Below are positions 9,264 to 44,785 of a DNA stretch of 62,803 bases, one piece after another. Location: IMG/VR virus record IMGVR_UViG_3300030106_006483, positions 1-62,803 of that record; one strand, given 5' to 3'. Within the stretch, counting starts at the first letter, position 1, and each line of letters starts with the position of its first letter. The stretch is from a virus. A program made the translations under genes and the position numbers. Below the pieces are notes generated by a model, which was given only the letters and a program-made list of their open reading frames with translations, ran no database searches and was not told the DNA's origin.

Positions 9264-10754
9264 ATGCCTGATATTAAAAAAATTTTAAAAGAATTAGATA
9301 TAAACAACCTAGAACCTGAGACTCGAAAAGAATTAAAAAAATTAATACTTCAAAAAGACCTCAAACAAAAACATAGTAAAATTCAAAATGATTTTATGCA
9401 TTTTGTAAAACATATGTGGCCTGAGTTTATTGAAGGAGACCATCATAAAATTATTGCAGAAAAATTTAATAATTTAAAAGCTAGAAAGATTAAGAGACTC
9501 ATTGTGAATATGCCCCCAAGGCATACAAAATCTGAGTTTGCATCTTTTCTTCTTCCTGCGTGGATGATTGGTAACAACCCAAAATTAAAAATTATTCAAG
9601 CAACCCACACAGCTGAACTTGCTGTAAGGTTTGGTCGTAAGGCTAAACACTTGATGGATAGTGAAGAGTATAAAGAAGTTTTTCCAACTAGACTTATGGA
9701 AGACAGTAAAGCTGCTGGTCGCTGGGAAACAGCACAAGGCGGCGAGTACTTCGCTGTTGGTGTTGAAGGTGCTGTAACTGGAAGAGGTGCTGATTTGTTA
9801 ATTATTGACGATCCACACTCGGAACAAGATGCTATGAACGATAAAGCATTACTTCGAGCTTATGAATGGTACACATCTGGACCAAGACAACGTCTTCAAC
9901 CTAATGGTGTTATTGTTTTAGTAATGACTAGATGGAACACAAAAGATTTAACAGGACTTTTACAAGCTGCACAAAAAGAACCTAAAGCTGATCAATGGGA
10001 AGTTGTAGAATTTCCAGCTATCTTGCCATCAGGTAAACCTGTGTGGCCAGAGTATTGGGACATAGATCAATTACTATCTGTTAAAGCATCTGTTGCATTA
10101 CCTAAATGGAATTCACAGTATATGCAGAACCCGACTTCTGAAGAAGGAGCTATATTAAAACGGGAGTGGTGGAAAAAATGGCCAGAAGATCAAGGCATTC
10201 CCCACTGTGATCACGTAATTCAAAGTTATGATACGGCTTATTTAAAAAAAGAAACGGCAGACTTTAGTGCCATTACAACTTGGGGTGTTTTTAGGCCCAG
10301 TGAAGATGGTCCGCAGCAATTGATTTTACTTGACGCCGTAAAAGATAGATACGAGTTCCCAGAATTAAGACGCGAGGCACTAAAATTATATAAATATTGG
10401 AAACCTGAGACTGTTTTAATAGAGGCAAAAGCCAGTGGTCTTCCTTTAACTTATGAATTAAGGAATATGGGTATTCCCGTTATCAATTTTACCCCGTCTA
10501 GAGGTAACGATAAACACGCTAGAGTTAACTCAGTGGCCCCTTTATTTCAGTCCGGCCAGGTTTGGGCCCCTACTCATCTTCAATTTGCTCAAGAAGTGGT
10601 AGAAGAGTGCGCAGCATTTCCTTTTGGAGACAATGATGACTTAGTGGATAGCACCACCCAAGCAGTTATGAGGTTTAGACAAGGAGGATTCTTAACCCAT
10701 CCGGAAGATTATAAAGACAAACCCCGTCCACATGTGCTAAAAGAATACTACTGA
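9264..10754 (+). CDS. terL: Terminase large subunit
   Basis: This is the packaging motor ATPase and nuclease. In the 496-residue form the Walker A variant MPPRHTKS lies at 83-90 and Walker B LLIIDDP at 178-184. The C-terminal RNase H-like nuclease has Asp323 (SYDTA), Glu387 (IEAKASG) and Asp458/459 (DNDDLVDSTTQA). The frame is open upstream to TTG 9210 and ATG 9219, but the ATG at 9264 (MPDIKKILKELDI) begins the helix-rich text normal for the family. It is followed at a TGATG overlap by the next gene. Confidence 0.95.
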   Translation: MPDIKKILKELDINNLEPETRKELKKLILQKDLKQKHSKIQNDFMHFVKHMWPEFIEGDHHKIIAEKFNNLKARKIKRLIVNMPPRHTKSEFASFLLPAWMIGNNPKLKIIQATHTAELAVRFGRKAKHLMDSEEYKEVFPTRLMEDSKAAGRWETAQGGEYFAVGVEGAVTGRGADLLIIDDPHSEQDAMNDKALLRAYEWYTSGPRQRLQPNGVIVLVMTRWNTKDLTGLLQAAQKEPKADQWEVVEFPAILPSGKPVWPEYWDIDQLLSVKASVALPKWNSQYMQNPTSEEGAILKREWWKKWPEDQGIPHCDHVIQSYDTAYLKKETADFSAITTWGVFRPSEDGPQQLILLDAVKDRYEFPELRREALKLYKYWKPETVLIEAKASGLPLTYELRNMGIPVINFTPSRGNDKHARVNSVAPLFQSGQVWAPTHLQFAQEVVEECAAFPFGDNDDLVDSTTQAVMRFRQGGFLTHPEDYKDKPRPHVLKEYY

Positions 10755-11737
10755 TGAAAACTTTAATTGACATATATAAAAATTTAGCAAAATTAGGAAT
10801 TAAGCCTAAAGATATTATAGGTATTGGTGGAAATATTAAAAAATTTGGTAAATCTTTGTTTAATCATCCAATTGGGACAGACATGTTAAGATGGATTAGA
10901 CAAAATGATAAGTTACCTAACAAAGTTATAGAGCAAATTAAAATTCATGCGCGAAGTTTAAAAAATGCTAATGATAAAGACCTTGTTATTTTTAATGAAA
11001 ACATAAAAAGAATTATAACTGCTAAAAATCCCCCAAGTGCCGACATAGTCAAGTTGCCAGTTTCTAGAATCAAGCGACCAGAGACAAAAATTGATGAGTC
11101 AGATCTACCACCACCAGGAAGTAGAGGTGAACCAGACGATATTGCAGCACCATTTCAAGATGCTGAGACAACAATTGCAAATATAACGAGTCAAATGTCT
11201 AAAATTAATAGGACTTCAAAAAACTTAGAGAAGGCAATCAAGGAATACGAAAATATTTATAAACCTAAAGGTGCAGAAGTCGATAAATGGATGAAAGCTA
11301 TTGCTGATAAAGAAAAACAAATGAATTTTCAAACTTCTGACGTTAAAAATATTGATGTTGCTAAAATATTGTTCAATGAAACAAATGAATTCGCTGCCGC
11401 TAAGGGAGAAGCAAGACTTATTTTAAATCATCTGGAAAAAGACGGTTTAATTAGCGGAGTTATAGATAAATTAAACAAAGGAGCCGATCCTTTGTTAATG
11501 TTCCAAAATACTTTTGGAAATAAGGCTCTACTTAACCTTCCAAATCAAGGATCGGTGCAATCTGCAGAATATTATGCTAAATTTTTGAAAAATGCTAGAG
11601 ATGCGAAAGGATTAAGAGTGGATGATCCAAATTTTAACAGAGAGACACTTGATTTAAGTAAATTAAATTTAGATGACATAGATATGGTACCTCCTTATGC
11701 ACGAGGTGGTATTGCTGATCATTTTAGGAGCAGATAA
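10754..11737 (+). CDS. Virion-block protein with GGIA tail motif
   Basis: The 327-residue protein is not recognised. It has a helical N-terminus, a proline-rich linker near 105-125 (DESDLPPPGSRGEPDD), a long coiled-coil-like middle and ends YARGGIADHFRSR. That last motif recurs in several other virion-block proteins. It lies between terminase and portal in a chain of one-base stop/start overlaps. Confidence 0.7.
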   Translation: MKTLIDIYKNLAKLGIKPKDIIGIGGNIKKFGKSLFNHPIGTDMLRWIRQNDKLPNKVIEQIKIHARSLKNANDKDLVIFNENIKRIITAKNPPSADIVKLPVSRIKRPETKIDESDLPPPGSRGEPDDIAAPFQDAETTIANITSQMSKINRTSKNLEKAIKEYENIYKPKGAEVDKWMKAIADKEKQMNFQTSDVKNIDVAKILFNETNEFAAAKGEARLILNHLEKDGLISGVIDKLNKGADPLLMFQNTFGNKALLNLPNQGSVQSAEYYAKFLKNARDAKGLRVDDPNFNRETLDLSKLNLDDIDMVPPYARGGIADHFRSR

Positions 11738-13662
11738 TGTATACCAATTGGTTACAAAGAAAATATAAACCAAATTTAAGAGAAAGGTTTGATTTAGCAG
11801 ATGGTGGTCGTTTAGGATTCTATGAAGGATCCTTAGTAAAGAAGGGTCCTAACACTGGAAAGTATAGTGTTAAGTTTCCAACTCATACGACCTTAGACGA
11901 AAAATATAAAGGTACTAAATATGGTACTAAAGCTGAAATTGAAGCGCTAATTAAAGAAAGAGCTGTTGTAGCCAAAAAAGCTTATGAAGTAGGATTAGAA
12001 AAAAGTAATATTAAAAAAAAGAACGTTGCCTCTACTAAATTTAAAAATTTAGTAGATGTAATTTTTGAAACAGAAAAATTTGAAGATTTTAAAACCAAAG
12101 TTCCAGAAAAATCTAAAAAATTTGTACTTCCTTCAGGTAATATAAGAATATCTCCAGGTGGGACTATTCCTGAGCACTATATGACCGAATTTAAGACGGC
12201 TATTGATGCGGGAACAGATTCCAAAGAATTTAAGGCTCTTAAAAAGAAATTAAATCGATCTACAGCTGATCTTTTAAAACTGGCTGAAAATTACGGTGCA
12301 ACAGATATTAAAAAACGATCTACCGCTGCTACACTTTCTTGGCCCGAAGATAGAAAATTAACGGCTGAACAGAAAAAGGAAAAAGCTAAATGGACTAAAG
12401 TACTGCGAACCGAGAGAGAAAAACAGTCTTTAAAATATTTAAGTGAACGAGAACTTAAAATTTTAAAATCTCAAAACAATCAAAAGAAAGTACTTAATTA
12501 TTTTTTTAAAAATAACCCTGAAAAGATTCTTACAAAACAGTTTGAGAAAATTCGACAATTAATGGACGTGCGATTAACTCCTGATGGAGAAATAATTTAT
12601 ACTAAAAGACCGGACAAGTATTATATTGATAAAGCTAAAAAAGGAAACATCTTTAGTATTTTTGATATATCACCAGTTAAAAGTGAAAAAAGAAGTATAC
12701 GATTTCCATATAATATTAATCTGGCTCCTTCACAATTTAATTCCGCTTTTATTAGACAACTTGAATCTTATTATCCTAATTTAGATGGAGCTAAACAAAA
12801 AAGTGTACAAAAGTTTTTAGCAGATCTTGGAATAGTTGTTGAAGTAAATGGACAAAGAATTGGATCTACTGAAAAACTTCCCGCAATTGGAAAAAATGGA
12901 CAGCTAACTAATATTTTAAGAACTTTAAATGCATTAAAGATTCCCAATAAATTAAAAACTATTGCATTAGGTGGTGCGGTTACTGTGACAGCTATGTCAA
13001 GCGCTATGGCTGGTGACAATGAAGTCAGTGAAGAAGATAAAAGTTTTGCAGATGAAATTGCAGGAGGTGCTACAATTATTGGAACGGATCTTGCTATTAA
13101 TAAAGCTCGAGTAAGTAAGTGGGCTTTGGATAAATTTGGTAAAGCTATTGCTCCTTTGGCAATGCCAGGAGTGCAAGGTGTGTATGAAACAGGTAAAGCA
13201 ATAGTAAAGGAAGAATTGCCCGATGCACCGGATTTAAGTAATCCGCTGACTTGGATGACTCCAGCATTTTGGAGTTGGGGAGTTAAACAATGGGGTTTTG
13301 ATAAAACACTAGAAAATTTTGGTAAGTCTTTAAGTCATTTGTCTAAAGGAGACAAAGTACGAGTAATAAGAAATCTGGTGGCCAGAGGATTTATGAAACC
13401 GGAACAATTACTTAAGATACGAAATTTTTCTGTTCCTTGGATAGCTGCTACTACAGTTGGAAAAGTATTTAAGCATGCAGAACCAAATCTTTTACGTGAT
13501 GAAAAAGGAGATCCTTTAGTGGAGCCTGATAAGGCACCTTTCTTATTAAGCGAAATGATTAAGGCTCACGATAAAAAATTCTTACCAGCTGACGTATATG
13601 AAAAAGAACATGGAGATTCTGAGCCCGATCTTCCTGATGTGTTTAAAGAACGGATCGAATGA
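11737..13662 (+). CDS. Large virion-block protein, unknown
   Basis: The 641-residue protein is not recognised. Near its start it has ADGGRLGFYEG (21-31), related to the GGR motif elsewhere, then a compact module (VKKGPNTGKYSVKFPT, YGTKAEIEALIKER) that recalls small DNA-binding or arm domains. The middle is basic and helical. Around 405-425 a hydrophobic glycine/alanine stretch could enter a membrane. Its location between terminase and portal suggests a virion or DNA-delivery protein. Confidence 0.7.
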   Translation: MYTNWLQRKYKPNLRERFDLADGGRLGFYEGSLVKKGPNTGKYSVKFPTHTTLDEKYKGTKYGTKAEIEALIKERAVVAKKAYEVGLEKSNIKKKNVASTKFKNLVDVIFETEKFEDFKTKVPEKSKKFVLPSGNIRISPGGTIPEHYMTEFKTAIDAGTDSKEFKALKKKLNRSTADLLKLAENYGATDIKKRSTAATLSWPEDRKLTAEQKKEKAKWTKVLRTEREKQSLKYLSERELKILKSQNNQKKVLNYFFKNNPEKILTKQFEKIRQLMDVRLTPDGEIIYTKRPDKYYIDKAKKGNIFSIFDISPVKSEKRSIRFPYNINLAPSQFNSAFIRQLESYYPNLDGAKQKSVQKFLADLGIVVEVNGQRIGSTEKLPAIGKNGQLTNILRTLNALKIPNKLKTIALGGAVTVTAMSSAMAGDNEVSEEDKSFADEIAGGATIIGTDLAINKARVSKWALDKFGKAIAPLAMPGVQGVYETGKAIVKEELPDAPDLSNPLTWMTPAFWSWGVKQWGFDKTLENFGKSLSHLSKGDKVRVIRNLVARGFMKPEQLLKIRNFSVPWIAATTVGKVFKHAEPNLLRDEKGDPLVEPDKAPFLLSEMIKAHDKKFLPADVYEKEHGDSEPDLPDVFKERIE

Positions 13663-13820
13663 AAAACCCAACATTAGTTAAAAACATGAAGAATGTTAAA
13701 TGGAAAGCAATTCCTCCTTTAAGAGGACCAGACCCGAAAGGGTTGATTAATAAGCCAAAACAAGATAAACCAGAAAGATTGGAGAAAACAAATGGCAGAT
13801 ATAGACAAATCCTTACCTAA
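13659..13820 (+). CDS. Small conserved-type protein
   Basis: A 53-residue frame starts in an ATGA overlap with the preceding stop and reads MKNPTLVKNMKNVKWKAIPP then LRGPDPKGLINKPK. It overlaps the portal start by 29 bases. The KWKAIPPLRGPDPKGL text resembles short proteins I recall beside portals in marine phages. Function unknown. Confidence 0.6.
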   Translation: MKNPTLVKNMKNVKWKAIPPLRGPDPKGLINKPKQDKPERLEKTNGRYRQILT

Positions 13821-16314
13821 CGTAAGGCAGACTACTACAATTCCCGGACCACAACAAGAAGCAGAAATAGTTTCTCAAATGCAAGAAACTGTTCCTACTC
13901 ACCAAGATACAGAAGTTACAGAAAACGAGGATGGAAGTGTAGACGTTAATTTTTCTCCTGGAGCAGTGGCTCCGGAGCAAGGATCAAATCATTACCAAAA
14001 TTTAGCTGAACTTTTACCTGATTCAATTTTAGAACCTCTTGGATCTGAGTTGATGGGTAACTATACAGATTACAGAGAATCCAGAAGAGAATGGGAAAGA
14101 TCTTATGCAAAAGGTTTAGATCTTTTAGGATTTCAGTTTGAACAAAGAACACAACCATTTCAAGGAGCTTCAGGTGCTACTCACCCCGTTTTAGCTGAAG
14201 CTGTCACACAGTTTCAATCACAAGCTTATAAAGAATTACTTCCTGCGAATGGTCCAATTAGGACTCAAATTTTAGGAATGGCTACTCCTCAAAAACAGGA
14301 CCAAGCGACAAGAGTAAAAGATTTTATGAACTACCAACTTATGGATGTCATGAAAGAGTATGAACCTGAATTTGATCAAATGTTATTCTATTTGCCATTA
14401 GCAGGTTCAACATTTAAAAAAGTTTATTACGACGATTTAATGGGACGAGCTGTATCAAAGTTTGTTCCGGCGGATGACTTAGTGGTTCCGTATTCGGCTA
14501 CCTCATTAGAGGATGCGGAATCCATATGTCATGTATTAAAAATTTCAGAGAACGATTTACGTAAACAGCAGGTTGGAGGATTTTATAGAGATATAGAACT
14601 CTATGCACCTTATGCAGAAGAATCTGAAGTTAAGAAAAAAGAACGAGAGCTAGAAGGTACTTCAGCAACGGGTTATCAAAAAGATAATAAGATATACACG
14701 TTAATTGAATGCCATGTCGATCTAGATCTTGAAGGGTTTGAAGACAGAGGCGAAGATGGAATGCCAACAGGAATTAAGCTTCCATACATTGTCACAATTG
14801 ATAGTAGCTCAAGAAAAGTTTTATCAATTAGAAGAAACTTTAAAGTTGATGATCCCAAGAAATTAAAAACACAATACTTTGTGCATTTTAAGTTTTTGCC
14901 TGGTTTAGGTTTTTATGGATTTGGATTAATTCATATGATTGGCGGTTTAACAAGAGCAGCCACAAGTGCTCTTCGTCAACTTTTAGATGCAGGTACCCTC
15001 TCCAATTTGCCTGCAGGATTTAAGCAGAGAGGAATTCGTGTAAACAACGATGCCCAATCTCTCCAACCTGGTGAATTTCGAGATGTCGATGCACCAGGTG
15101 GAAACCTTAAAGATGCTTTTATGACTTTGCCTTACAAAGAACCTTCAGCGACATTATTACAATTGATGGGAATTTGTGTTACGGCTGGACAGCGATTCGC
15201 GTCAATTGCTGACATGCAGGTAGGTGACGGGAACCAACAGGCTGCTGTTGGAACTACTGTAGCTCTTTTAGAACGTGGTTCGAGAGTCATGTCAGCGATA
15301 CATAAGAGACTGTATGCGTCTATGAAAATTGAGTTTGTTTTATTAGCAGATGTATTTTCAACGTATCTACCTCCAGTGTATCCGTATGATGTGGTGGGTG
15401 GGAATAATCAAATTAAACAACAAGATTTTGACGATAAAATAGATATACTTCCTGTAGCAGATCCAAATATATTTTCTTCTACTCAAAGAGTTTCTATTGC
15501 ACAAACAGAATTACAATTAGCACAATCAAATCCCCAAATGCATAATATGTACGAAGCGTATAGGGATATGTATGAGGCAATAGGTGTTAAAAACATTGAT
15601 CAAGTACTACCGCCTCCTGCACAGCCTCAACCAAAAAATCCAGCATTAGAACACATAGATGCTTTAGGTGGAAAACCTTTTCAAGCATTTACTGGACAAG
15701 ACCATCAATCACACATTACAGCGCACTTAGCTTTTATGGGTACAAACATGGCAATGAATAATCCGGTGATTTTATCAGCTTTAGAAAAAAATATTTTTGA
15801 ACACATGGCATTAATGGCCGATGAACAAGTTCAACTAGAGATGAGAGATAATATTATGCAAATACAACAGATTCAGCAAACAATTCAACAAAATCCACAA
15901 ATGCAAGAGGATCCTCAAATTAAACAAGAGCTAGAAAGACTTCAATTAGAAGTAGAAGCTAGAAAAGCTGTTTTAATTGCAGAAATGATGGAAGAGTTTG
16001 TTAAAGAGCAACAAAAAGTAATGGGAGGTTTTGGTAATGACCCAATTGCTAAATTAAGAGCTAGAGAACTAGATCTTAAGGCTCAAGACAATAAGAGAAA
16101 AGAAAAAGAAGACGAAGCTCGAATTAATTTAGATAAAACTAAAATGTTAATGAATAGAGATCTTCAAGAAGAGAAAATGGATCAAAACGAAGAATTAGCT
16201 ATGCTTAGAGCTGCAACATCTATTGAAAAACAAAAAATGTCAAATCGTGCAAAAGCAAAATCAGATGCAACGAAAAGATTTGATGTTACTAAACTCAAAG
16301 GTCCTAGAAGCTAA
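13792..16314 (+). CDS. Portal protein (P22-type)
   Basis: The 840-residue protein forms the DNA channel at the head-tail vertex. Its size, long helical C-terminus and text such as EWERSYAKGLDLLGFQFEQR, PFQGASGATHPVLAEA, FKFLPGLGFYGFGLIHMIGG and LRQLLDAGTLSNLPAGFK fit podovirus-like portals of the P22 class. The C-terminal region (about 690-820) is a long Gln/Glu-rich coiled coil, comparable to the P22 barrel. It follows terminase as usual and is preceded by a GGAG ribosome-binding site. Confidence 0.88.
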   Translation: MADIDKSLPNVRQTTTIPGPQQEAEIVSQMQETVPTHQDTEVTENEDGSVDVNFSPGAVAPEQGSNHYQNLAELLPDSILEPLGSELMGNYTDYRESRREWERSYAKGLDLLGFQFEQRTQPFQGASGATHPVLAEAVTQFQSQAYKELLPANGPIRTQILGMATPQKQDQATRVKDFMNYQLMDVMKEYEPEFDQMLFYLPLAGSTFKKVYYDDLMGRAVSKFVPADDLVVPYSATSLEDAESICHVLKISENDLRKQQVGGFYRDIELYAPYAEESEVKKKERELEGTSATGYQKDNKIYTLIECHVDLDLEGFEDRGEDGMPTGIKLPYIVTIDSSSRKVLSIRRNFKVDDPKKLKTQYFVHFKFLPGLGFYGFGLIHMIGGLTRAATSALRQLLDAGTLSNLPAGFKQRGIRVNNDAQSLQPGEFRDVDAPGGNLKDAFMTLPYKEPSATLLQLMGICVTAGQRFASIADMQVGDGNQQAAVGTTVALLERGSRVMSAIHKRLYASMKIEFVLLADVFSTYLPPVYPYDVVGGNNQIKQQDFDDKIDILPVADPNIFSSTQRVSIAQTELQLAQSNPQMHNMYEAYRDMYEAIGVKNIDQVLPPPAQPQPKNPALEHIDALGGKPFQAFTGQDHQSHITAHLAFMGTNMAMNNPVILSALEKNIFEHMALMADEQVQLEMRDNIMQIQQIQQTIQQNPQMQEDPQIKQELERLQLEVEARKAVLIAEMMEEFVKEQQKVMGGFGNDPIAKLRARELDLKAQDNKRKEKEDEARINLDKTKMLMNRDLQEEKMDQNEELAMLRAATSIEKQKMSNRAKAKSDATKRFDVTKLKGPRS

Positions 16315-17702
16315 TGCCTTTTCAATCTGAAAAGCAACGAAGATTTCTACACGCTAATCATCCACAAATAGCAAAGCGTTGGGAAAAAGAATATGCAGGG
16401 GGTGGAACTGCACATTTAAATTTTGAACTTAATCAACTGCCTGAATATTATTTGCAAGCTAAAAAAGGAGGCATTGCAAATCATTTTAGAAAAAAGTTTG
16501 AAGATGGAACAGAAGATCCTGAATATTTAGGATGGTTAAAAACATATGAAATAAATCCAGATGCAGCAGCCATGCATCCTAATCATGAACACTATTTACA
16601 GATATATAATGAAAGTATGATGCAACAAACATCTAGTAATGGAATTTTAGATACTGAAGAAAGTGAAATGGATGTCACAACCGCAGAAGCTCCAGATGAA
16701 AATACTGGAGGAGAAATGATCAATCTTTTTGCAGAAAATGTTGAAGATCAATCTAATGCTCCTACAACTTTATTTATGAACAGTGGGGGAATATCACAGC
16801 TAGTTAAATCTAGTGGCAATGGTAAACGACCTGGATATAGAGGTAGTGACTGGGGGGATTGGGCAGGTGGAGAATTTGATACTTCAGCACCAAAGAGTTC
16901 AGCTCCTAGTACAGTTAACATAGGAGCGAGTCTCCATGGTGGACCTTCGGTTAAAGAAACTTTTAAAAATTTGGAAGAAAAAAAACATAGAGAAGCAGTT
17001 AATACAGAATTTCAAGGTACTGTGGAAATGCCCTACGCTTTAGATCTGCATGGAATAACACCTTCAAAGAATCAACGAGTAACAATTCATCAGAAGAACG
17101 TAGATAAGAAAAAATTAAACTATGAGAAAACATTAGCCACTCAAAAATCAAAAATGATGAAGACGGGACTAAGCAAACTTGTTATGCCCGCTATTATGAT
17201 AGCCTTCGGAGTTCCACCTAAAACGGCTGTAAAGAGTATTTCATTGGGTAAAGGTGATTTTTATAACATAGTAAAAAACAGCATTCCTGTAATGCAAGCA
17301 AAAAAAGAATATATTAGAGCTCTTGAAAATGCCAAAGGAGTGATATTATCAGATGTTGATTTGAATAATCCGAAGGAAATGAAAAGTCTAGAAGAGACAA
17401 CCAATCTTGTAAAAATAAATGAAGAGATAAAAAATTTAACTAAAAAGAAAGATGATGATGAAGAGACTAGAGATGGTCAACCAGAATTACCTCCTATTTT
17501 AGAGGAACCTGCTGATGAAGAGGACCAGTATGCTTCATTTATAACTGATTATTTAGGAAAAATTCGAGAGAAACAACAATTAAGGGCTTCTTTAAAAGAT
17601 AAAGATATAATTCAAGATAATGAAATTGCAACAGACGATATAACAATGACATTAAATAAGGGTGGACTTGCAAACTTATTTAGAGTAAAAAATCAATATT
17701 AG
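16314..17702 (+). CDS. Virion-block protein with GGIA motifs
   Basis: The 462-residue protein starts MPFQSEKQRRFLHANHPQIA, a start I know from marine phage proteins of unknown function. It carries KGGIANHFRKKF (51-62), a Gly/Ser-rich linker (about 155-200) and ends NKGGLANLFRVKNQY. The middle includes a hydrophobic part (LVMPAIMIAFGVPP, about 291-305). It sits directly after the portal (TAATG overlap). Probably a virion or assembly protein. Confidence 0.72.
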   Translation: MPFQSEKQRRFLHANHPQIAKRWEKEYAGGGTAHLNFELNQLPEYYLQAKKGGIANHFRKKFEDGTEDPEYLGWLKTYEINPDAAAMHPNHEHYLQIYNESMMQQTSSNGILDTEESEMDVTTAEAPDENTGGEMINLFAENVEDQSNAPTTLFMNSGGISQLVKSSGNGKRPGYRGSDWGDWAGGEFDTSAPKSSAPSTVNIGASLHGGPSVKETFKNLEEKKHREAVNTEFQGTVEMPYALDLHGITPSKNQRVTIHQKNVDKKKLNYEKTLATQKSKMMKTGLSKLVMPAIMIAFGVPPKTAVKSISLGKGDFYNIVKNSIPVMQAKKEYIRALENAKGVILSDVDLNNPKEMKSLEETTNLVKINEEIKNLTKKKDDDEETRDGQPELPPILEEPADEEDQYASFITDYLGKIREKQQLRASLKDKDIIQDNEIATDDITMTLNKGGLANLFRVKNQY

Positions 17703-17711: not shown

Positions 17712-17942
17712 ATGAGAAATGATTTTGGAAATAGACCTTATAAACCTAGATTCCCATATTCATCAGATAAGGGATCTAAGAAACAGGGCTATGATGACAG
17801 ACTTGACGAATCTCTAGGAATGAGAGACGGCAAAGAATCAACTAAGTCTCAAAGCTTTAAAGCTAGAAGAGACGAATCAAAAGGCATGGAGAAAGCATCT
17901 GGTAATAGAGCTTATGCTTCTGTCGGAACTATGGATAAATAA
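17712..17942 (+). CDS. Small repeat protein A
   Basis: A 76-residue hydrophilic protein with KKQGYDDRLDESLGMRDGKE and later SFKARRDESKGM. The same phrase with small changes appears in the next gene, so the two share a duplicated module. AGGAG precedes the ATG. I recall RRDES(K)GM phrases in marine phage small proteins; function unknown. Confidence 0.68.
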   Translation: MRNDFGNRPYKPRFPYSSDKGSKKQGYDDRLDESLGMRDGKESTKSQSFKARRDESKGMEKASGNRAYASVGTMDK

Positions 17943-17943
17943 T

Positions 17944-18294
17944 ATGGCAAATACTAGAAGAATGAATAGACTTGAAGAACTTGGAAGAGTAGATGCAGAA
18001 AAAGCATGGACTAAAAAAGGTAAAAGAAATCTTAAAGACGAGAAAAAAAGAATCGTAAGAGAACTTAAAGCTACCGGTGGCTCTGTTAAAAAACAAGGCT
18101 ACAAAGATAGAGAAGATGAATCTCTAGGTATGAGAACTGGAAAAGAATCCACTAAGAAACAGTCTATGAAAGATCGTAGAGATGAGTCTTATGGAAAATG
18201 GGGTAGTAGACCAAACCAAAGCATTAATAAAAAAGGTGGTGGAATTGCTAAAAGAGGTTTAGGAAAAGCTTTTAGAGGCGGTGGTTTAGTCTAA
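17944..18294 (+). CDS. Small repeat protein B with Gly-rich tail
   Basis: The 116-residue form starts MANTRRMNRLEELGRVDAEK; an ATG 30 bases upstream is less likely because it lies deep in the previous gene. It contains KKQGYKDREDESLGMRTGKE and KKQSMKDRRDESYGKW, paralogous to protein A, and ends GGGIAKRGLGKAFRGGGLV, a version of the shared glycine motif. Function unknown. Confidence 0.68.
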   Translation: MANTRRMNRLEELGRVDAEKAWTKKGKRNLKDEKKRIVRELKATGGSVKKQGYKDREDESLGMRTGKESTKKQSMKDRRDESYGKWGSRPNQSINKKGGGIAKRGLGKAFRGGGLV

Positions 18295-18878: not shown

Positions 18879-19225
18879 TGCCAGAATATTTTAGAAGTAC
18901 AGCAAAGAAACCAGCATCTACTAAAGTCCGTAAAGGATATAAAAAAGGTGATTGGATTCAAGATGCAATTAAAAGACCGGGAGCATTTACCAAAAAAGCC
19001 AAAGCCGCAGGAATGTCTGTAGGGGCATATGCTAATAAGGTTTTAAAGAAAGGAAGCGACGCTTCAACTAGAACCAAGAGACAAGCTAATCTTGCAAAAA
19101 CTTTAAGAAGTTTTCATGCAGATGGTGGTTTAACTAAAGTTGGTGGTTACAAACCAGTTTTAGGAAGTAATAAATTTGGATATCCAAGTGGTGGGGTACC
19201 CGTTAAAAAAGGTGGAAAAGTATAA
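18878..19225 (+). CDS. Basic virion-block protein
   Basis: The 115-residue lysine-rich protein contains WIQDAIKRPGAFTKKAKAAG and RTKRQANLAKTLRSF, a pattern seen in small basic proteins of many viruses and phages. It ends with several Gly-Gly phrases (ADGGLTKVGGYK, YPSGGVPVKKGGKV). It could bind packaged DNA; function is unproven. Confidence 0.65.
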   Translation: MPEYFRSTAKKPASTKVRKGYKKGDWIQDAIKRPGAFTKKAKAAGMSVGAYANKVLKKGSDASTRTKRQANLAKTLRSFHADGGLTKVGGYKPVLGSNKFGYPSGGVPVKKGGKV

Positions 19226-19461
19226 TGGAAGGAATGCATTTACTTTTTAAGTTACAGAAAGAAATTAAAACTGTTCAAGATAATTTGTCAGGTGTTCTGT
19301 TAAATGGACAGGTTGACAAATGGGAAAAATATCAATATATGGTAGGACAGCTAAAAGCGTATCAAATAGTATTACAGGAAATCTCTAACCTGCTAAAAGA
19401 TAAGGAGCATGAAAATGAAGACACAACAACCAATATCCACAAACTCAAACCAAAAGATTAA
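19225..19461 (+). CDS. Small coiled-coil protein
   Basis: A 78-residue helical protein (HLLFKLQKEIKTVQDNLSGV, then WEKYQYMVGQLKAYQIVLQE). It overlaps the co-chaperonin gene by 47 bases. Similar short proteins occur before GroES-like genes in marine phages, so it may be an assembly helper; unproven. Confidence 0.65.
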   Translation: MEGMHLLFKLQKEIKTVQDNLSGVLLNGQVDKWEKYQYMVGQLKAYQIVLQEISNLLKDKEHENEDTTTNIHKLKPKD

Positions 19462-35991: not shown

Positions 35992-36731
35992 AAAAGAAAC
36001 AAAAGAAAGCAAGAAAAGTAAAGATTCAAAAAGAATTGGATAAGATATCCTGTGGAAGTGCCAAATCATTTCCTAAACAATTAACTCGAGAAGATTTATT
36101 TAGATGTCCTATATGGTTTGCTGATGAACCTGCATTCGTAGATGATTTAAATAAAGCGTCTGATAAATATATAGAAGATTCTAAAAAGAATTTAAAAAAA
36201 GATATTGATAAAAGGAATAAGGAATTTGGAGATAAAGGAGATATGGGTAACGTGTTTCATTCTACATCATTAATCGGTGATCCTAATTTTAAACAATTAC
36301 AAGATTATATAGGTGCTACAGCCCATAATTTATTGGTAGAAATGGGTTTTGACTTAACCAATTATCAATTGTTTACTACAGAAATGTGGGTACAAGAGTT
36401 TGCTAAAAGAGGTGGTGGACACCATACTTTACATACTCATTGGAATGGTCACATATCCGGTTTTTATTTTTTAAAAGCTAGTGAGAAAACCTCTCGGCCT
36501 TTATTTGAAGATCCTCGGCCAGGAAACATAATGAATCTTTTACCAGAAAAAGATAAAACACAAGTAACCTATGCAAGTTCTCAAATTAATTATGATGTAA
36601 GACCAGGTCGTCTGATATTCTTCCCGTCTTATATGCCCCATCAATATATAGTAGATATGGGATATGAGCCATTTAGGTTTATTCACTGGAACTGTCAAGC
36701 TATACCGAAAGGAGTATTAAATGTCACCTAA
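35988..36731 (+). CDS. 2OG-Fe(II) oxygenase 2
   Basis: The 247-residue protein begins with a basic tail (MKKKQKKARKVKIQK), then a helical part. Its core TEMWVQEFAKRGGGHHTLHT followed by HWNGHISGFYFL and the later PGRLIFFPSYMPHQY matches putative 2OG-Fe(II) oxygenases with His149-x-His151 in place of His-x-Asp, His218 and Arg230. It overlaps gene 1 by 4 bases (ATGA) and gene 3 by 11. Substrate unknown. Confidence 0.8.
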   Translation: MKKKQKKARKVKIQKELDKISCGSAKSFPKQLTREDLFRCPIWFADEPAFVDDLNKASDKYIEDSKKNLKKDIDKRNKEFGDKGDMGNVFHSTSLIGDPNFKQLQDYIGATAHNLLVEMGFDLTNYQLFTTEMWVQEFAKRGGGHHTLHTHWNGHISGFYFLKASEKTSRPLFEDPRPGNIMNLLPEKDKTQVTYASSQINYDVRPGRLIFFPSYMPHQYIVDMGYEPFRFIHWNCQAIPKGVLNVT

Positions 36732-37218
36732 AGTTGTAGAAAATTTTTTATCTCCTTCGAATTATAATGCTTTATACAGTGCCCTTACGAATGAATATTT
36801 TCCCTGGTATTATAATAATTATAAAGTTAAAGAAGTATCTGATAAATTATTTCACTATCAATTTACTCATGTTTTTTTTGAAAATAATAAAATTAATTCT
36901 AGTTATTTTACTATTTTACAATCTTTACTTGAAAAATTAAAACTTAAAACTTTAAAAAAAGTTAAAGCTAATTTAAACCCTATTAGTGACAAGTTAATAG
37001 AATTTAGTGAACATCAAGATGCTTTCAAAGAATTACAATGTACGAGCATGATATATTATCTTAACACTAATAACGGCTATACTAAAATAAAAAATAAAAA
37101 AATAAAATCTAAAGCAAATAAAGCTGTTTTTTTTCCATCTCACGCTTTTCATTTTGGAACAAATTCAACGGATTGTAATAACAGAATGGTGATAAATATA
37201 ATATATAAGGAGGATTAA
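36721..37218 (+). CDS. 2OG-Fe(II) oxygenase 3 (small)
   Basis: The 165-residue protein shows His98-x-Asp100 (SEHQDAF), YYLNTNNGYTKI, then FPSHAFHFGTNSTDCNNRMV with His144 and Arg155. The start (VVENFLSPSNYNALYSALTN; EYFPWYY) fits a short oxygenase family known from cyanophages. AAAGGAG precedes the ATG. The DNA here is more AT-rich and the protein more Lys/Asn-rich than its neighbours. Confidence 0.7.
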   Translation: MSPKVVENFLSPSNYNALYSALTNEYFPWYYNNYKVKEVSDKLFHYQFTHVFFENNKINSSYFTILQSLLEKLKLKTLKKVKANLNPISDKLIEFSEHQDAFKELQCTSMIYYLNTNNGYTKIKNKKIKSKANKAVFFPSHAFHFGTNSTDCNNRMVINIIYKED

Positions 37219-37854
37219 ATGTCATTCAAAAAGAATAAATATACAGTGTTAAAGGGAGTTATCAATAGAGAGATGGCTGATTTTTGTTTTGCTTATTTCT
37301 TAAATAAAAGAAAGGTAGCAAGATTTTTATTTGATCAAAAATATATATCCCCTTTTACTGAGTACTGGGGTGTATGGAATGATCAACAAGTCCCTAATAC
37401 TTATTCTCATTATGGAGATTTAGTCATGGAAACTTTATTACAAAAAGTTCAACCCGTTATGGAAAAACATACCGCGCTTAAGTTATGTCCTACATATTCC
37501 TATGCAAGAATTTATAAAAAAGGGGATGTGTTAGCTAGACATAAAGATAGATATTCGTGTGAAATTTCTACTACCTTAAATTTAGGAGGAGATGATTGGC
37601 CTATTTATTTAGAACCTTCTGGAAGAACGGGTCAAGCAGGTATTAAAGTAGATCTTAAACCTGGTGATATGTTAATATATTCAGGATGTGATCTTGAACA
37701 TTGGAGAGAAGAATTTACAGGCAAAGATTGTGCTCAAGTATTTTTACATTACAATAAAAAAGGTTCTAAACTAGCTAAAGAAAATGAGTTTGATAAGCGT
37801 CCATTTTTAGGACTTCCCGCTTGGTATAAAGGCTTTACATTACCTAAAAAATAA
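37219..37854 (+). CDS. 2OG-Fe(II) oxygenase 4
   Basis: The 211-residue protein has YARIYKKGDVLARHKDRYSC (His108-x-Asp110), STTLNLGGDDWPIYL, PGDMLIYSGCDLEHWREEF (His161) and CAQVFLHY. It resembles 2OG-Fe(II) oxygenases of marine cyanophages. AGGAGG lies before the ATG, which directly follows the third oxygenase stop. It ends the group before a hairpin. Confidence 0.82.
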   Translation: MSFKKNKYTVLKGVINREMADFCFAYFLNKRKVARFLFDQKYISPFTEYWGVWNDQQVPNTYSHYGDLVMETLLQKVQPVMEKHTALKLCPTYSYARIYKKGDVLARHKDRYSCEISTTLNLGGDDWPIYLEPSGRTGQAGIKVDLKPGDMLIYSGCDLEHWREEFTGKDCAQVFLHYNKKGSKLAKENEFDKRPFLGLPAWYKGFTLPKK

Positions 37855-40329: not shown

Positions 40330-40348
40330 GTTAGGATAAGAAAAAGAC

Positions 40349-40893: not shown

Positions 40894-40962
40894 TAATAGT
40901 ATATATTCAGGCAAAATACCTGCACTCAAAGAGTATAACATTTTCAAGGAGAATTAAAAATT

Positions 40963-42720
40963 ATGGCCGATTGGTGGGATATAGTAAAAACAGGAGCTGA
41001 TATAGTCCTTTCAGGCGGAAAGGCTTACTTAGATTACAAGAGCAAAAAGAAACAAAATGAGATGATTCAAAAGTCTTATGATGATTATATGGCTCAACAA
41101 AAAGAAGCAGCTAAAGTTGCACAGAGAGCTGTTTCAACTAATCTTACCCCCATGACCGTTTTTAATAAACCCTCTACTAAAGCAGATGTAACAGACTTTA
41201 CTGCTGTTAAAGATGGCGGAATTATGAATTTAAAAAATGGATCTCGTCCAACATACCAAGAAGGAATTGGTCCATTGGTTGAACAAGTTTCTATGCAAGA
41301 AGATGTATCTGAAGTACCAGCAGGCGGAGATATGCCACCTGAACTTGCAGAATTAATTAGAAGTTTACACGCAGAACATTATGAAAGATTAAAAGCTATG
41401 GGTAAAACCGACGAAGAAATTATGAAAATTCTTATGGACATGGCTATGAGTATGATTCAAGCAGACGCACAAGGTAAAACTCCTGAAGGAATGGGAGTAG
41501 AGGTTCAAGCTGAAGAAATGATTGATGTAAAAAATGGTGGTATTATGGGACTAAGAAAAGGTGGTAGAAGTAATTATAGATCTCAAGGAATTGTAACAGA
41601 ATCGATAACTCAAGAAAATGAAATAGAGTCTCCACCTCAAGATGAAGTTAGGGTAAATGACATGCTTCTTGGAAGCCCAGATTATCAAGGAGGAATTACA
41701 ACCAGCGATATTATTAATCCAACAAGAACAGATGAAGACGTCCAAGCTGCAAGAGCAGATATAGAAAAATCTAACCAAGCAAATCAAATTCAAGAAACAG
41801 CTACAGTTCTTATAGAAGAACTGATACTGCCTCCAGAGGAAGCTCTAGAAGGAGCCCACAAGATAAACGCAGTTGAAAAAGCGGTTCCTGGTGCTAGTCG
41901 TATTGCTCTAATGTTAATAAAAAATCAGCTAATGGATGTAGACTCAGCTATAGACGCAGCTGTAAGGATGGTAAAGAGCTCTCAAATTGATCAATCATTA
42001 GCTCAAGGTGGTATCATAGGACTAAGAAAAGGTGGTAGAAGTAATTATAGATCTCAAGGTTTTGTAGATGAAGATGAAGATATAGAAGTAATGGACCCTG
42101 AATCACTAGGAGACTATGAACTTAAAATGGAAGAAGGAGTTGACATTGGTCCAATGGCTACTGGCCCGAGTGATAAATATGAAGCACAAATTCAAAAACT
42201 TATGCAAGAAATGAATATTAGTAGAGAATTAGCTGAAGCATTAATACTTGGTTCTGATCCTGCTTCAGTAGATTTCTTAAAAAATTTAAGAAAAGGTGGT
42301 ATTGCAGGTTTAAGACAAGGCGGAAGAATTGGGTATTCTGAAGGTAGTTGGGAAGCAGAATGGGACAGGCTTTATAACGACTACAAAGCAAAACAGATTG
42401 AATTAGGAAAAGAATTTGTATCTAAAGAAGAGTTTATAGATATGCATAGAGATAACAATGCTCAAGGCGGAAGAGTTCAAAGATACGGTGGGGGTGTGAT
42501 GGATCTTGGGGGAATAGAAAAAGATTATAGAACAACTGGGGGCTTTGTTGACATTGGTGGTAGAGAAAGAGCGGATGATGTTCCAGCTCGATTAAGTAGA
42601 AATGAATTTGTAATGACAGCCGATGCAGTAAGAGCTGCCGGCGGTGGTAGTATTAATAAAGGTGCACAAAGAATGTATAATGTAATGAAACATTTAGAAA
42701 CAAAAGGAGCTGCAGCTTAA
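40963..42720 (+). CDS. Virion protein with repeated GGIM/GGR motifs
   Basis: The 585-residue protein has a short N-terminal domain (MADWWDIVKTGADIVLSGGK) and many GGI/GGR phrases: DGGIMNLKNG, KNGGIMGLRKGGRSNYRSQG, QGGIIGLRKGGRSNYRSQG and RKGGIAGLRQGGRIGYSEG. Its end (RADDVPARLSRNEFVMTADA then VRAAGGGSINKGAQRMYNVM) is a strongly conserved phrase known from the ends of phage tail and injection proteins. Likely an ejection/internal protein. Confidence 0.72.
   Translation: MADWWDIVKTGADIVLSGGKAYLDYKSKKKQNEMIQKSYDDYMAQQKEAAKVAQRAVSTNLTPMTVFNKPSTKADVTDFTAVKDGGIMNLKNGSRPTYQEGIGPLVEQVSMQEDVSEVPAGGDMPPELAELIRSLHAEHYERLKAMGKTDEEIMKILMDMAMSMIQADAQGKTPEGMGVEVQAEEMIDVKNGGIMGLRKGGRSNYRSQGIVTESITQENEIESPPQDEVRVNDMLLGSPDYQGGITTSDIINPTRTDEDVQAARADIEKSNQANQIQETATVLIEELILPPEEALEGAHKINAVEKAVPGASRIALMLIKNQLMDVDSAIDAAVRMVKSSQIDQSLAQGGIIGLRKGGRSNYRSQGFVDEDEDIEVMDPESLGDYELKMEEGVDIGPMATGPSDKYEAQIQKLMQEMNISRELAEALILGSDPASVDFLKNLRKGGIAGLRQGGRIGYSEGSWEAEWDRLYNDYKAKQIELGKEFVSKEEFIDMHRDNNAQGGRVQRYGGGVMDLGGIEKDYRTTGGFVDIGGRERADDVPARLSRNEFVMTADAVRAAGGGSINKGAQRMYNVMKHLETKGAAA
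41536..41588 (+). repeat. 53-bp intragenic repeat, copy 1
   Basis: Encodes GGIMGLRKGGRSNYRSQG. Differs from 42007-42059 at two bases, much closer than the surrounding code, so it spread by recent duplication or is strongly selected. Confidence 0.85.
42007..42059 (+). repeat. 53-bp intragenic repeat, copy 2
   Basis: Encodes GGIIGLRKGGRSNYRSQG, in frame with copy 1, 471 bases downstream. Confidence 0.85.
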
Positions 42721-43637
42721 TGGCACAACAATTTGATACATCGGGAATGGGGTTACTCCCTTCTGGGGTTCTTCAACCGTACGGTGAAAATATTCTTAAA
42801 TATGGTATCGGGCAACTAGGATCTCCTATCGATGTAGGAGGATTAACTCCTAAAGTTGCAGGACAAACTGCTTTTCAACAACAAGCAGCTCAGGGAATTG
42901 CTGACCTTGCTGGTTTAGGTCAAGTTCAAAGAGACGCTAGTGGCCAGGTTACAGGGTTTACAGGCGGTACAGGTGTTGCATCTTATCAACCTTACTTAGA
43001 TCAAATTTCTCAACAACAGTTAATGGATCCTTCTCAAAGCTATCAACAATTTATGTCACCTTATCAGACAGCTGTAATAGATGAAACTTTAAAAGAATTT
43101 GACAAACAAGCAGCTATTCAAAAACAACAAATTGGAGGAGATGCCTATACTGCAGGAGCTTATGGAGGAGCTAGACAAGGTGTGGCAGAAGCAGAATACC
43201 AAACAGGCTCCGATAGAAACAGAGCAGCTTTAGTGGCAGGATTACAAAGTGATGCATATAACCAAGCTTTAACAAGAAGAGACCAACAGTTAGCTGATCT
43301 ACAAAATATGGCAACTTTTGTTCCCGGATTACAACAAACAAATATTGCAGCAATGGATGCATTAGGTGCACAAGATCAAGCATTAGAACAACAAAAATTA
43401 AACCAATTAGCAGCAGCTAATCAAACTGCATATCAATTACCACTGGATAGAATTACAGATGTTGCAAACGTTTACGGTACAGTATCTGGAGCAATGCCTG
43501 GATCACCAACACAGAAATTTACACAGGACCCAATACTTTCTGGTATTGGAGGATTTTCACAAATGTATTCAATGTTAAATCCAGCTGAAGGTAAAGGTGC
43601 AACGCAATCGTTAATAGATATGATTAGAGGAGCATAA
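42720..43637 (+). CDS. Probable DNA ejection protein
   Basis: The 305-residue Gln/Ala-rich protein has FMSPYQTAVIDETLKEFDKQ and GDAYTAGAYGGARQGVAEAE, which resembles injection/internal head proteins of marine podophages. The middle is a long helix with many Gln. TAATG overlap with the preceding gene. It fits the class of proteins released into the host with DNA. Confidence 0.68.
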   Translation: MAQQFDTSGMGLLPSGVLQPYGENILKYGIGQLGSPIDVGGLTPKVAGQTAFQQQAAQGIADLAGLGQVQRDASGQVTGFTGGTGVASYQPYLDQISQQQLMDPSQSYQQFMSPYQTAVIDETLKEFDKQAAIQKQQIGGDAYTAGAYGGARQGVAEAEYQTGSDRNRAALVAGLQSDAYNQALTRRDQQLADLQNMATFVPGLQQTNIAAMDALGAQDQALEQQKLNQLAAANQTAYQLPLDRITDVANVYGTVSGAMPGSPTQKFTQDPILSGIGGFSQMYSMLNPAEGKGATQSLIDMIRGA

Positions 43638-44785
43638 TGTTTAATAGAATTTTAAAAAGACCCATGTTTAGAAGAGGAGGAGCTAGCTTTTCTGTTCAAG
43701 GAACGGGAATTACTTCAGGGTTAGATACACCTAGAAGAGGATATAAAAGAGGACTGGTAGTTGAACCAGGAGGTTATCAAGGAGACATAGAGGTAGCTAC
43801 TATCAATAAACTTGAAGCCAAAGACAAATATAAGAAAGCGATAGAAGATCAGGGAAAAACTATTACTGAATCAATTAAAGCACCTAGTGGAGACATATTA
43901 GATTACTTTGCATCATTTTCTGATGTTCAAAAAGATCAATATGGTAATGACGAGACTGCGGGTCAAACAAGTTATCGAGGATACGAAAAGGTAATGGATA
44001 AAAGAAGAGAATACCAAGACAAAAAAGCTGCCGCACAAATAGCAGCAGGAGAAGCAGGTGTTGAAGGTGCTAAAACTATTTATGAAGCCACAACAGATGC
44101 AGAGATTAAAATGTTAACTCAAAAGTTAGCTAACGAAGGAGCAATTAACGTAGCAGAAATTGCAAACGCTTTTGAAAATACAGCTACAGGTGGAATGATT
44201 CAAGAAATTAAATCTAGAACAGATATTGATGAAAAGACAAAAAATAAAATGATTCAAGAAATAATAATGAAAAGTAATAAGCCAAAACTAATTGCTAATC
44301 TTACGCAAGCTATTCTAGATAATGCTAGTGCTAATATGATTAAAATGGATCCAGAAAAAGCTGCGCAACAAGCTGCTTCAATTGTAGGAAACATATATCT
44401 AATGATAGGTCTGGGGCAAACTTTTGCTAAAGGTGGCAGAGTTGGATTGCAACAATCTTATCCAGGAACTGTAGGACAAGCTCAAGTAGCTGCACCTCAA
44501 CAAGCTAGTTTTACAGAAACCGAGAATATTATGACTCCTAACCAAGACGTTCAAATTTCAGAAACTGAAACTGTTACTGGACAAAGACCAGTAGTTCAAA
44601 TGCCTTATGAAGAATTTAGAGCAGCCATCCCTGCTGAGGTTAGTGATGAAGTGGTACAATTAATCTATTATAATGAAGACGCCTTTGCAGATTTTTCTTC
44701 CATAAGTACTCAAGCGGATATCTATGCTTTCAACAACAAATACGGAGTGACTCTCGTGTTACCTATGGACACGGAGACAGTGTAG
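43637..44785 (+). CDS. Virion protein with GG motifs
   Basis: The 382-residue protein begins MFNRILKRPMFRRGGASFSV, an arginine/glycine start typical of the GG motif set, and has FAKGGRVGLQQSYPG near 270. The centre is helical (EIKMLTQKLANEGAINVAEI). The C-terminal part (FRAAIPAEVSDEVVQLIYYN) looks like a small compact domain. Probably an internal virion protein. Confidence 0.68.
   Translation: MFNRILKRPMFRRGGASFSVQGTGITSGLDTPRRGYKRGLVVEPGGYQGDIEVATINKLEAKDKYKKAIEDQGKTITESIKAPSGDILDYFASFSDVQKDQYGNDETAGQTSYRGYEKVMDKRREYQDKKAAAQIAAGEAGVEGAKTIYEATTDAEIKMLTQKLANEGAINVAEIANAFENTATGGMIQEIKSRTDIDEKTKNKMIQEIIMKSNKPKLIANLTQAILDNASANMIKMDPEKAAQQAASIVGNIYLMIGLGQTFAKGGRVGLQQSYPGTVGQAQVAAPQQASFTETENIMTPNQDVQISETETVTGQRPVVQMPYEEFRAAIPAEVSDEVVQLIYYNEDAFADFSSISTQADIYAFNNKYGVTLVLPMDTETV

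What the first reader, a model, noticed from the sequence alone, without database searches (positions are those of the whole stretch)
10754..44785. A shared glycine motif (GGIA..FR / GGR.GY) scattered over unrelated virion-block proteins
At least seven otherwise unrelated proteins of the virion block carry short copies of one theme: RGGIADHFR (end of 10754-11737), DGGRLGFYEG (start of 11737-13662), KGGIANHFRKKF and KGGLANLFR (16314-17702), GGGIAKRGLGKAFRGG (17944-18294), DGGLTKVGG (18878-19225), four to five copies in 40963-42720, and KGGRVGLQQ in 43637-44785. They often lie at protein ends. None were seen in replication genes. This looks like a common sorting, packaging or processing tag, or a short element that spreads between genes. 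I recall similar phrases in many uncultured marine phages without a known role.
Basis: seen in the sequence. Interest (0 to 1): 0.75.

Follow-up and report, generated by a model that had tools for sequence, protein, structure and literature searches.

The report
Shared peptide joints in phage cargo proteins
In a group of very common ocean phages, a recurring peptide of about 13 residues marks the joints and ends of otherwise different, rapidly reshuffled proteins that are probably packed in the virus head and injected into the host, which suggests an unrecognised tagging system for phage cargo.

Summary
The window is an HTVC023P-type pelagiphage-like genome. In 172 loci (window plus relatives), GGR[VILAM][GNQ][YFL] occurs 199 times against 1-2 in shuffled proteins. 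The full motif is about [KFMY]-A-D-G-G-R-[IV]-G-[FY]-x-x-G-[GST], with featureless flanks. It is absent from TerL, portal and 609 ORFs upstream of TerL. It concentrates in a hypervariable slot between TerL and portal and in two proteins of a putative ejection cassette. A related C-terminal tag (GGLAxMLGE) independently finds the same slot proteins. The motif sits in predicted disordered linkers, at module boundaries and at gene-fusion points; slot proteins and ejection protein 1 share modules beside it. Its codons are diverse, so it is selected as peptide, not a DNA element. Best explanation: a loading/ejection tag that doubles as module joint (about 0.45). Virion location, binding partner and cleavage are untested. 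No paper found mentions it.

The parts
9210..10754 (+). Terminase large subunit (left border of the variable slot); no motif
   Evidence: phrog_38 E=1.4e-104, Pfam Terminase_6C; motif 0 of 85 TerL
10754..11737 (+). Slot ORF 1 (327 aa, unknown); C-terminal tag ARGGIADHFRSR
   Evidence: N-terminal 111 aa 47% identical to N-terminus of the 1135-aa L017 slot ORF
11699..11734 (+). C-terminal tag ARGGIADHFRSR (GGIA..FR dialect)
11737..13662 (+). Slot ORF 2 (641 aa, unknown); motif near N-terminus
11794..11832 (+). Motif LADGGRLGFYEGS, PSSM 27.8
13792..16314 (+). Portal protein (right border of the slot); no motif
   Evidence: phrog_1216 E=8e-68, Pfam SU10_portal E=4e-10; motif 0 of 77 portals
16314..17702 (+). 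Post-portal ORF (462 aa) with internal GGIANHFRKKFEDGTE and C-terminal NKGGLANLFRVKNQY
   Evidence: 16-aa identity to L017 slot ORF
16461..16508 (+). KKGGIANHFRKKFEDG
17655..17699 (+). C-terminal tag NKGGLANLFRVKNQY
18232..18291 (+). C-terminal KGGGIAKRGLGKAFRGGGLV of small post-portal ORF 17914-18294 (weak, different dialect)
   Evidence: no PSSM hit >=10
19118..19156 (+). ADGGLTKVGGYKP in 18878-19225 (weak)
   Evidence: no PSSM hit >=10
40963..42720 (+). Putative ejection protein 1 (585 aa): helical modules joined by motif-bearing linkers, tape-measure-like C-terminus
41206..41244 (+). Motif copy VKDGGIMNLKNGS
41527..41589 (+). Motif copy VKNGGIMGLRKGGRSNYRSQG; contains 41-nt repeat 41548-41588
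41590..41997 (+). Stretch between the two repeat-bearing motif copies; the extra 157-aa unit (one motif copy plus this stretch) is absent at this junction from L001, L002, L003, L005, L006
41998..42060 (+). Motif copy LAQGGIIGLRKGGRSNYRSQG; contains 41-nt repeat 42019-42059
42286..42348 (+). Double motif LRKGGIAGLRQGGRIGYSEGS (canonical copy, PSSM 28.6)
42457..42495 (+). Motif copy NAQGGRVQRYGGG
42538..42630 (+). GGFVDIGGRERADDVPARLSRNEFVMTADAV: tape-measure-like C-terminal element
   Evidence: phrog_5448 E=1.9e-6; Gordonia and Tsukamurella phage tape measures 57-65% identity over 37-41 query residues
42720..43637 (+). Putative ejection protein 2, no motif
   Evidence: phrog_4287 DNA ejection protein E=0.0028 (weak); 0 of 90 homologues with motif
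43637..44785 (+). Putative ejection protein 3 with motif
   Evidence: 37 of 64 homologues with motif
44423..44461 (+). Motif FAKGGRVGLQQSY, PSSM 21.8
44791..49650 (+). Putative ejection protein 4 (1619 aa), essentially no motif
   Evidence: 3 of 57 homologues with motif; the large ORF in the same cassette of DSL-LC04 is annotated DNA transfer protein

Best explanation
The motif is a peptide-level tag and joint for cargo proteins packed in the head of HTVC023P-type pelagiphages and ejected into the host. Shown: a conserved 13-residue peptide embedded in unrelated, predicted-disordered flanks; restriction to the TerL-portal slot, two proteins of the putative ejection cassette and a few post-portal ORFs; a C-terminal partner tag; position at module edges and gene-fusion points; module sharing between slot proteins and ejection protein 1. 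Inferred: (1) a common partner in the growing head (portal, inner core or scaffold) binds the peptide and so loads whatever is attached; (2) the flexible glycine linkers let the cargo pass the portal and tail as a string of small modules; (3) because every module is bounded by the same acceptable peptide, modules can be gained, lost, fused or split at it without loss of the tag, which makes the slot hypervariable.
For: 199 against 2.1 expected; 95% G at +8 and 68% A at -2, positions the regex did not ask for. Reversed-peptide control 3 against >=120; in frame in 76 of 76 viral loci examined but only 12 of 80 bacterial-genome loci examined. Category table: slot 59 of 152 ORFs, ej1 70 of 90, ej3 37 of 64, against 0 of 609 upstream ORFs, 0 of 85 TerL, 0 of 77 portals, 0 of 90 ej2. 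C-terminal tag scan: 60 new loci, 41 with the internal motif, 28 of 33 complete ORFs >=200 aa, 51 beside a portal. Module edges: indels with both ends at motif 81 against 12.3+-4.1; with motif masked 55 against 9.9+-3.5; random-site masking 19-23. 19 of 120 slot ORFs share non-motif modules with ej1, 0 of 247 upstream ORFs; edges near motif 26 of 76 against 11.6+-3.4. Linkers: all six copies of window ej1 lie in pLDDT<50 stretches between helical modules; slot protein L186 motif (within 137-193) and most of its C-terminal tag likewise. The same 16 residues in two unrelated proteins with silent differences only.
Against: No virion proteome was available, so head location is inferred from gene neighbourhood and module sharing. 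Motif-free ej2 and nearly motif-free ej4 suggest that ejection does not require it. HTVC023P and DSL-LC04, two of four named relatives, lack the canonical GGR[IV]G[FY] and have only looser GG[IL] forms. About half of slot ORFs >=150 aa (50 of 108) have no PSSM hit; 22 of 108 have neither hit nor C-terminal GG tag. In slot proteins motif codons were not more conserved than flanks (2.29 against 1.59; only 52 codons). All copies in disordered linkers is weak alone, since 359 of 585 residues of that low-confidence model (mean pLDDT 47) are below 50.
Confidence: 0.45

Rival explanations
1. Processing site: a protease cuts at or next to the Gly-Gly, so that multi-module ORFs are polyproteins and the C-terminal tag is a removable tail. 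The Tat-like RRxF[LMI]K module that often follows would then gain a free N-terminus.
For: 27 of 166 slot motifs are followed within 20 aa by a Tat-like RRxF[LMI]K sequence against 1.4 expected; three stand-alone ORFs begin exactly at that module (L023, L035, L036); 12 of 27 junctions keep a Met between motif and RR; up to five motifs per ORF.
Against: No head-maturation protease was recognised besides hits of the capsid protein to fused capsid-protease profiles, although not every window ORF was scanned; conservation extends on both sides of GG (A -2, R, I, F/Y, G +8), more than a cleavage site usually needs; most motif copies are not followed by RRxF.
Confidence: 0.2
2. Neutral joint: a flexible linker kept because recombination at its coding repeats shuffles modules, with no binding partner.
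For: Motif at module edges; perfect 41-nt direct repeat flanking the extra module in the window; disordered in models.
Against: Codons are diverse and flanks unlike, so most copies are not recombining repeats; specific residues R, I/V, F/Y are not needed for flexibility; related tags stand at C-termini where nothing is joined.
Confidence: 0.22
3. Small conserved mini-domain or remnant of one ancestral protein family spread by ordinary divergence.
For: With motif masked, 127 of 186 motif ORFs are linked by some local similarity.
Against: Those links are partial modules; ej3, post-portal and several slot ORFs remain unlinked; information content drops to background outside -3..+9.
Confidence: 0.08
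4. GroEL-binding decoy: GGI[AM]xL resembles the GroES mobile loop, and these phages encode GroES.
For: Window GroES carries KGGVIM (19409-19861); some dialect copies read GGIMGL. The mobile-loop consensus is recalled.
Against: The dominant form has Arg and Gly at positions that are hydrophobic in the mobile loop (loop recalled); no test of binding.
Confidence: 0.03

Closest known systems
T4 capsid targeting sequence (CTS) on internal proteins IPI-III
   Same: A short peptide on otherwise divergent, variable internal proteins that brings them into the prohead; carriers differ between related phages (PMC9026906, passages read).
   Different: The CTS is N-terminal, 10-19 residues, and removed by the gp21 protease; here the peptide is internal, repeated up to five times or C-terminal, in a podophage-type genome without a recognised separate prohead protease.
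Long propeptides of giant-phage ejection proteins (SPN3US, phiKZ)
   Same: Targeting role proposed for ejected head proteins (PMC5694885, passages read).
   Different: Mostly more than 100 residues, N-terminal, cut by a prohead protease.
Siphophage tape-measure C-terminal element (DDVPARLSxxEFVMTA type)
   Same: ej1 of the window carries it.
   Different: The GGR motif is separate from it and also on proteins that lack it.
Twin-arginine (Tat) signal peptide
   Same: RRxFLK plus weakly hydrophobic stretch after many slot motifs; Pfam TAT_signal E=0.00044 and 0.0039, below its cut-off.
   Different: Mostly internal; N-terminal only in three stand-alone ORFs; absent from the window's slot ORFs by reading.
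Polymorphic toxin / Rhs architecture (recalled)
   Same: Conserved ends with variable interior modules.
   Different: No such toxin domain was recognised by Pfam in ten slot proteins; the only hit above cut-off is one PcfJ.

Membership tests
T4-type capsid targeting sequence | N-terminal position | tested here: not met
   Motif positions spread over slot proteins, most in the middle (histogram by tenths: 19 10 6 15 23 29 43 27 14 11)
T4-type capsid targeting sequence | Shared by otherwise divergent proteins of one phage group | tested here: met
T4-type capsid targeting sequence | Carrier is packaged in the head | not testable with these tools
   needs virion proteomics
T4-type capsid targeting sequence | Removed by a prohead protease | not testable with these tools
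   no separate protease recognised among scanned ORFs
Tat signal peptide | N-terminal (S/T)RRxFLK with hydrophobic core | tested here: not met
   internal in the fused forms; N-terminal only in L023, L035, L036 ORFs
Tape measure protein | C-terminal DDVPARLS element | tested here: met
   ej1 only: phrog_5448 E=1.9e-6
Tape measure protein | Long alpha-helical rod setting the length of a long tail | tested here: inconclusive
   window ej1 is modelled as short helical modules with disordered linkers, mean pLDDT 47; HTVC023P-type genomes are described as Podoviridae (PMC9599517, start of abstract in search listing)
DNA ejection protein cassette | Homology to known ejection proteins | tested here: inconclusive
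   phrog_4287 E=0.0028 for 42720 only; DSL-LC04 annotation 'DNA transfer protein'
Double-glycine (C39) leader (recalled) | Gly-Gly at end of an N-terminal leader cut by a C39 peptidase | tested here: not met
   motif internal or C-terminal

The most novel reading that the evidence does not exclude
These abundant ocean phages run an open cargo platform: a hypervariable slot between TerL and portal supplies interchangeable effector modules, each bounded by the same peptide joint and closed by a C-terminal tag, loaded in the head by one receptor, injected, and in part released at the joint so that Tat-like membrane modules are directed to the host envelope. Modules are exchanged between slot proteins and ejection protein 1 at the joints.
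Probability: 0.2. Interest if true: 0.92.

Novelty: categorically new. Interest (0 to 1): 0.8.

Why it matters
[quoted passage not shown] A peptide that predicts which unknown ORFs are cargo would annotate a large part of that dark matter at once, give a search handle for ejected effectors in viral metagenomes, and, if the tag works by itself, give a loading signal that can be tested with one fusion protein. It also suggests a rule for how phage virion proteins are remodelled: module exchange at a conserved peptide joint.

Tried and rejected
Mobile DNA element: rejected for most copies because codons are diverse and flanks unlike; only the pair in window ej1 was seen as a perfect DNA repeat. 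Chance or composition: rejected. Bacterial origin: the pattern in genome contigs is in frame at about the one-in-six chance rate (12 of 80 examined); one of the 12, in a 3.3-kb SAR86 contig (L294), looks like phage. tblastn of a 22-residue motif peptide in the phage collection: no match. tblastn of three full carriers: none for L244; only HTVC027P and 023Pt_psg01 for L187, and these plus DSL-LC04 for L238, so named phages outside this group give no annotation. Control phages HTVC010P (whole record) and CRP-901 (first 50 kb of 53 kb): no motif. Structure search of the slot-protein model: no PDB match at E<=0.001; three viral matches at that level, all uncharacterised. PDB sequence search: nothing for ej2, two chains near E=0.03 for ej1, taken as chance. 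Papers: full-text search for GGRIGF, GGRIGY, GGRVGF, GGRVGY, ADGGRIG, SGGLARMLGE found 0; searches listed nothing to the point; in PMC9599517 a term search found no 'glycine', 'ejection' or 'portal' in the main text. BLAST-boundary test without masking is biased towards the motif, so the masked version is the one to trust: 183 against 106+-10.

Caveats of method. The ORF caller is mechanical and greedy. The PSSM was trained on the loci it then counted. Glycine-rich ORFs (>16% Gly) were dropped from the shuffle counts and from PSSM hits. Whole-genome records put many ORFs in 'downstream of portal'. Module-edge counts treat related proteins as independent. The motif codon test compares only places where both proteins keep the motif, which favours conservation. 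The pattern loci used (slot list) were chosen for ADGGRIG; searches exclude them.
Full report
What the window is. The window is a virus record of 62,803 bases. Its terminase is closest to Pelagibacter phage HTVC027P (73% identity), phage 023Pt_psg01, DSL-LC04 and HTVC023P, so it belongs with the HTVC023P-type pelagiphages. The late block starts with TerL (9210-10754), two unknown ORFs (10754-11737 and 11737-13662), the portal (13792-16314), small ORFs, GroES, capsid, tail proteins, and a four-gene cassette at 40963-49650 that I call the ejection cassette (ej1 to ej4). That name is an inference: a weak hit of 42720-43637 to a DNA ejection protein family (phrog_4287, E=0.0028), the annotation 'DNA transfer protein' of the large ORF in the same cassette of DSL-LC04, and a tape-measure-like C-terminus of 40963-42720.

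The motif is real. In 172 loci (window, four named phages, 167 IMG/VR loci) the pattern GGR[VILAM][GNQ][YFL] occurs 199 times in 2,357 distinct ORFs with at most 16% glycine; shuffling gives 1.1 (residues) or 2.1 (dipeptides kept). From 188 distinct instances the logo is [KFLMY]-A(68%)-[DNE]-G-G-R-[IV]-[G/N]-[FYL]-x-x-G(95%)-[GST]; the A and the last G were not part of the search. Outside positions -3 to +9 the flanks carry little information. All 76 new viral loci examined have the peptide in a called ORF, against 12 of 80 bacterial-genome loci examined; both scans found more stretches than were listed.

Where it is. With a score threshold of 10 (314 real, 4 shuffled sites), the motif is in 59 of 152 ORFs of the TerL-portal slot, 70 of 90 at the ej1 position, 37 of 64 ej3, 10 of 383 other ORFs downstream of the portal, 4 of 586 upstream of the ejection cassette, 3 of 57 ej4, 1 of 57 other cassette neighbours, 2 of 10 unplaced, and in none of 609 ORFs upstream of TerL, 85 TerL, 77 portals, 90 ej2 or 173 ORFs downstream of the cassette. 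The slot varies from no ORF at all to several ORFs, the longest about 1,400 residues, with up to five motif copies in one.

A C-terminal partner. 59 of 107 slot ORFs >=150 aa end with GG[ILVMA] in the last 20 residues, against 3 of 130 upstream ORFs. Typical ends are ASGGLAxMLGE, GGLATMFKEKR, GGIADHFRSR, and a second type RGPxxQGLxxLxKR. A scan for the DNA of GG-x-A-x-MLGE-stop, made without regard to the internal motif, gave 60 new loci: 41 of the tagged ORFs have the internal motif (28 of 33 complete ones >=200 aa), 51 loci hold a portal homologue and 28 a TerL. So two peptides mark one class of protein.

A joint between modules. AlphaFold models put all six motif hits of window ej1 into low-confidence linkers between short helical modules (mean pLDDT 47, so weak), and the same for the motif and most of the C-terminal tag of slot protein L186:2326-3363. 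Close ej1 homologues differ by whole modules. In the window an extra 157-residue unit lies between two motif copies that share a perfect 41-nt direct repeat (41548-41588 and 42019-42059); L001, L002, L003, L005 and L006 have a single copy at this junction. Over 105 ej1 proteins, indels with both ends within 15 residues of a motif number 81 against 12.3+-4.1 expected; with the motif masked before alignment 55 against 9.9+-3.5, while masking random sites gives 19-23. For slot proteins the pairs are few: 16 of 30 indels with at least one end at a motif against 5.0+-2.0, both ends 1.

Gene fusions at the motif. Three phages have a separate ORF that begins with MNRRAFLK, MNRRSFIK or MIKRDFLK; for two of them (L023, L036) related sequence elsewhere sits inside larger slot proteins and in several cases starts directly after GGR[IVA]G[FY]xxG; the homology reported for the L035 ORF lies in another part of that protein. 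In L017 the N-terminus of window slot ORF 1 and a region related to slot ORF 2 are in one 1,135-residue protein, with GGIANHFRKKF copies between. There the 16 residues GGIANHFRKKFEDGTE equal those of the unrelated window ORF 16314-17702; the DNA printed differs at 9 codons, all silent by my reading.

Slot and ejection protein 1 share modules. With the motif masked, 19 of 120 slot ORFs match an ejection-cassette protein, in each best case ej1, against 0 of 247 upstream ORFs. Example: L080 residues 317-374, between motifs at 296 and 386, match ej1 of L155 residues 296-353, between motifs at 274 and 361; L083 residues 698-853, between a motif and the C-terminal tag, match ej1 of L126 between two motifs. 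Edges near motifs: 26 of 76 against 11.6+-3.4, maximum 24 in 1,000 trials. Many other edges are not at motifs. This link is my main reason to place slot proteins in the same compartment as ej1.

Independence of the carriers. Coverage-based clustering gives 33 motif-bearing clusters, but any local similarity at E<1e-3 reduces 186 motif ORFs to 19 components, the largest with 127. So the carriers are a module-sharing network plus unlinked proteins, not dozens of fully independent families.

Selection. Motif codons show replacement/silent ratios of 1.11 against 2.40 in nearby flanks for ej1 and 0.44 against 1.77 for ej3, but 2.29 against 1.59 for slot proteins on only 52 codons. The comparison uses only places where both proteins keep the motif, which favours conservation.

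How it most likely works. Shown: peptide, distribution, joint position, module sharing. Inferred: a head-assembly partner binds the peptide and loads the cargo; flexible joints help passage through the tail; a universal joint makes module exchange harmless. The nearest known thing in function is the T4 capsid targeting sequence, but position differs and processing is untested, so I do not file it there. The chief rivals are a processing site, supported by the Tat-like modules after 27 of 166 slot motifs, and a neutral joint. Against my reading: HTVC023P and DSL-LC04 have only looser GG motifs, 22 of 108 slot ORFs have neither tag, slot codons did not show added conservation, and no virion data exist here.

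Novelty. The six-string full-text search found no paper; Pfam and PHROGs gave no informative family for the motif or for nearly all slot ORFs scanned, one PcfJ domain excepted. A tag that is at once internal, repeated, C-terminal and a module joint on phage cargo matches no kind I know; the function remains to be shown.

Noticed in passing
L023:6356-7030, L035:6642-8267, L036:4774-5973 and internal copies in L074, L080, L092, L009:8406-11084: Tat-like RRxF[LMI]K plus weakly hydrophobic glycine-rich segment in slot proteins, about 40 times denser than in ORFs upstream of TerL.
   Followed up: partly
L009:8406-11084, L080:3572-4555, L054:7287 and others: Slot-2 proteins from different clusters share an N-terminal string like MKxxxYNxMMAYLTRPGFxxGT (15 of 160 slot proteins by a strict pattern).
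   Followed up: partly
window 18878-19225: GDWIQDAIKRPGAFTKKAK string; short weak matches to phrog_15706 and Fusellovirus VP2 cover the same residues 25-37.
   Followed up: no
window 17712-18294 and post-portal ORFs of L026, L036, L038, L058: Small basic post-portal proteins with KKQGYKDRxDESLGMR repeats, or C-terminal GGGIAKRG / GG[FR][IV]A[RK]GCG strings.
   Followed up: partly
window 50330-50716: S-adenosylmethionine decarboxylase-like gene (phrog_3125, E=3.1e-18).
   Followed up: no
window 35362-37854: Four adjacent ORFs that look like 2OG-Fe(II) oxygenases by reading and by annotation of genes at similar places in relatives.
   Followed up: no
L012:10344-12821 (DSL-LC04): Slot protein with a PcfJ domain (Pfam E=5.2e-9), the only slot protein of ten scanned with a Pfam hit above cut-off.
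   Followed up: no
L012:43137-45416 (DSL-LC04): ej1 homologue annotated as tail tape measure protein, probably from its C-terminal element alone.
   Followed up: no
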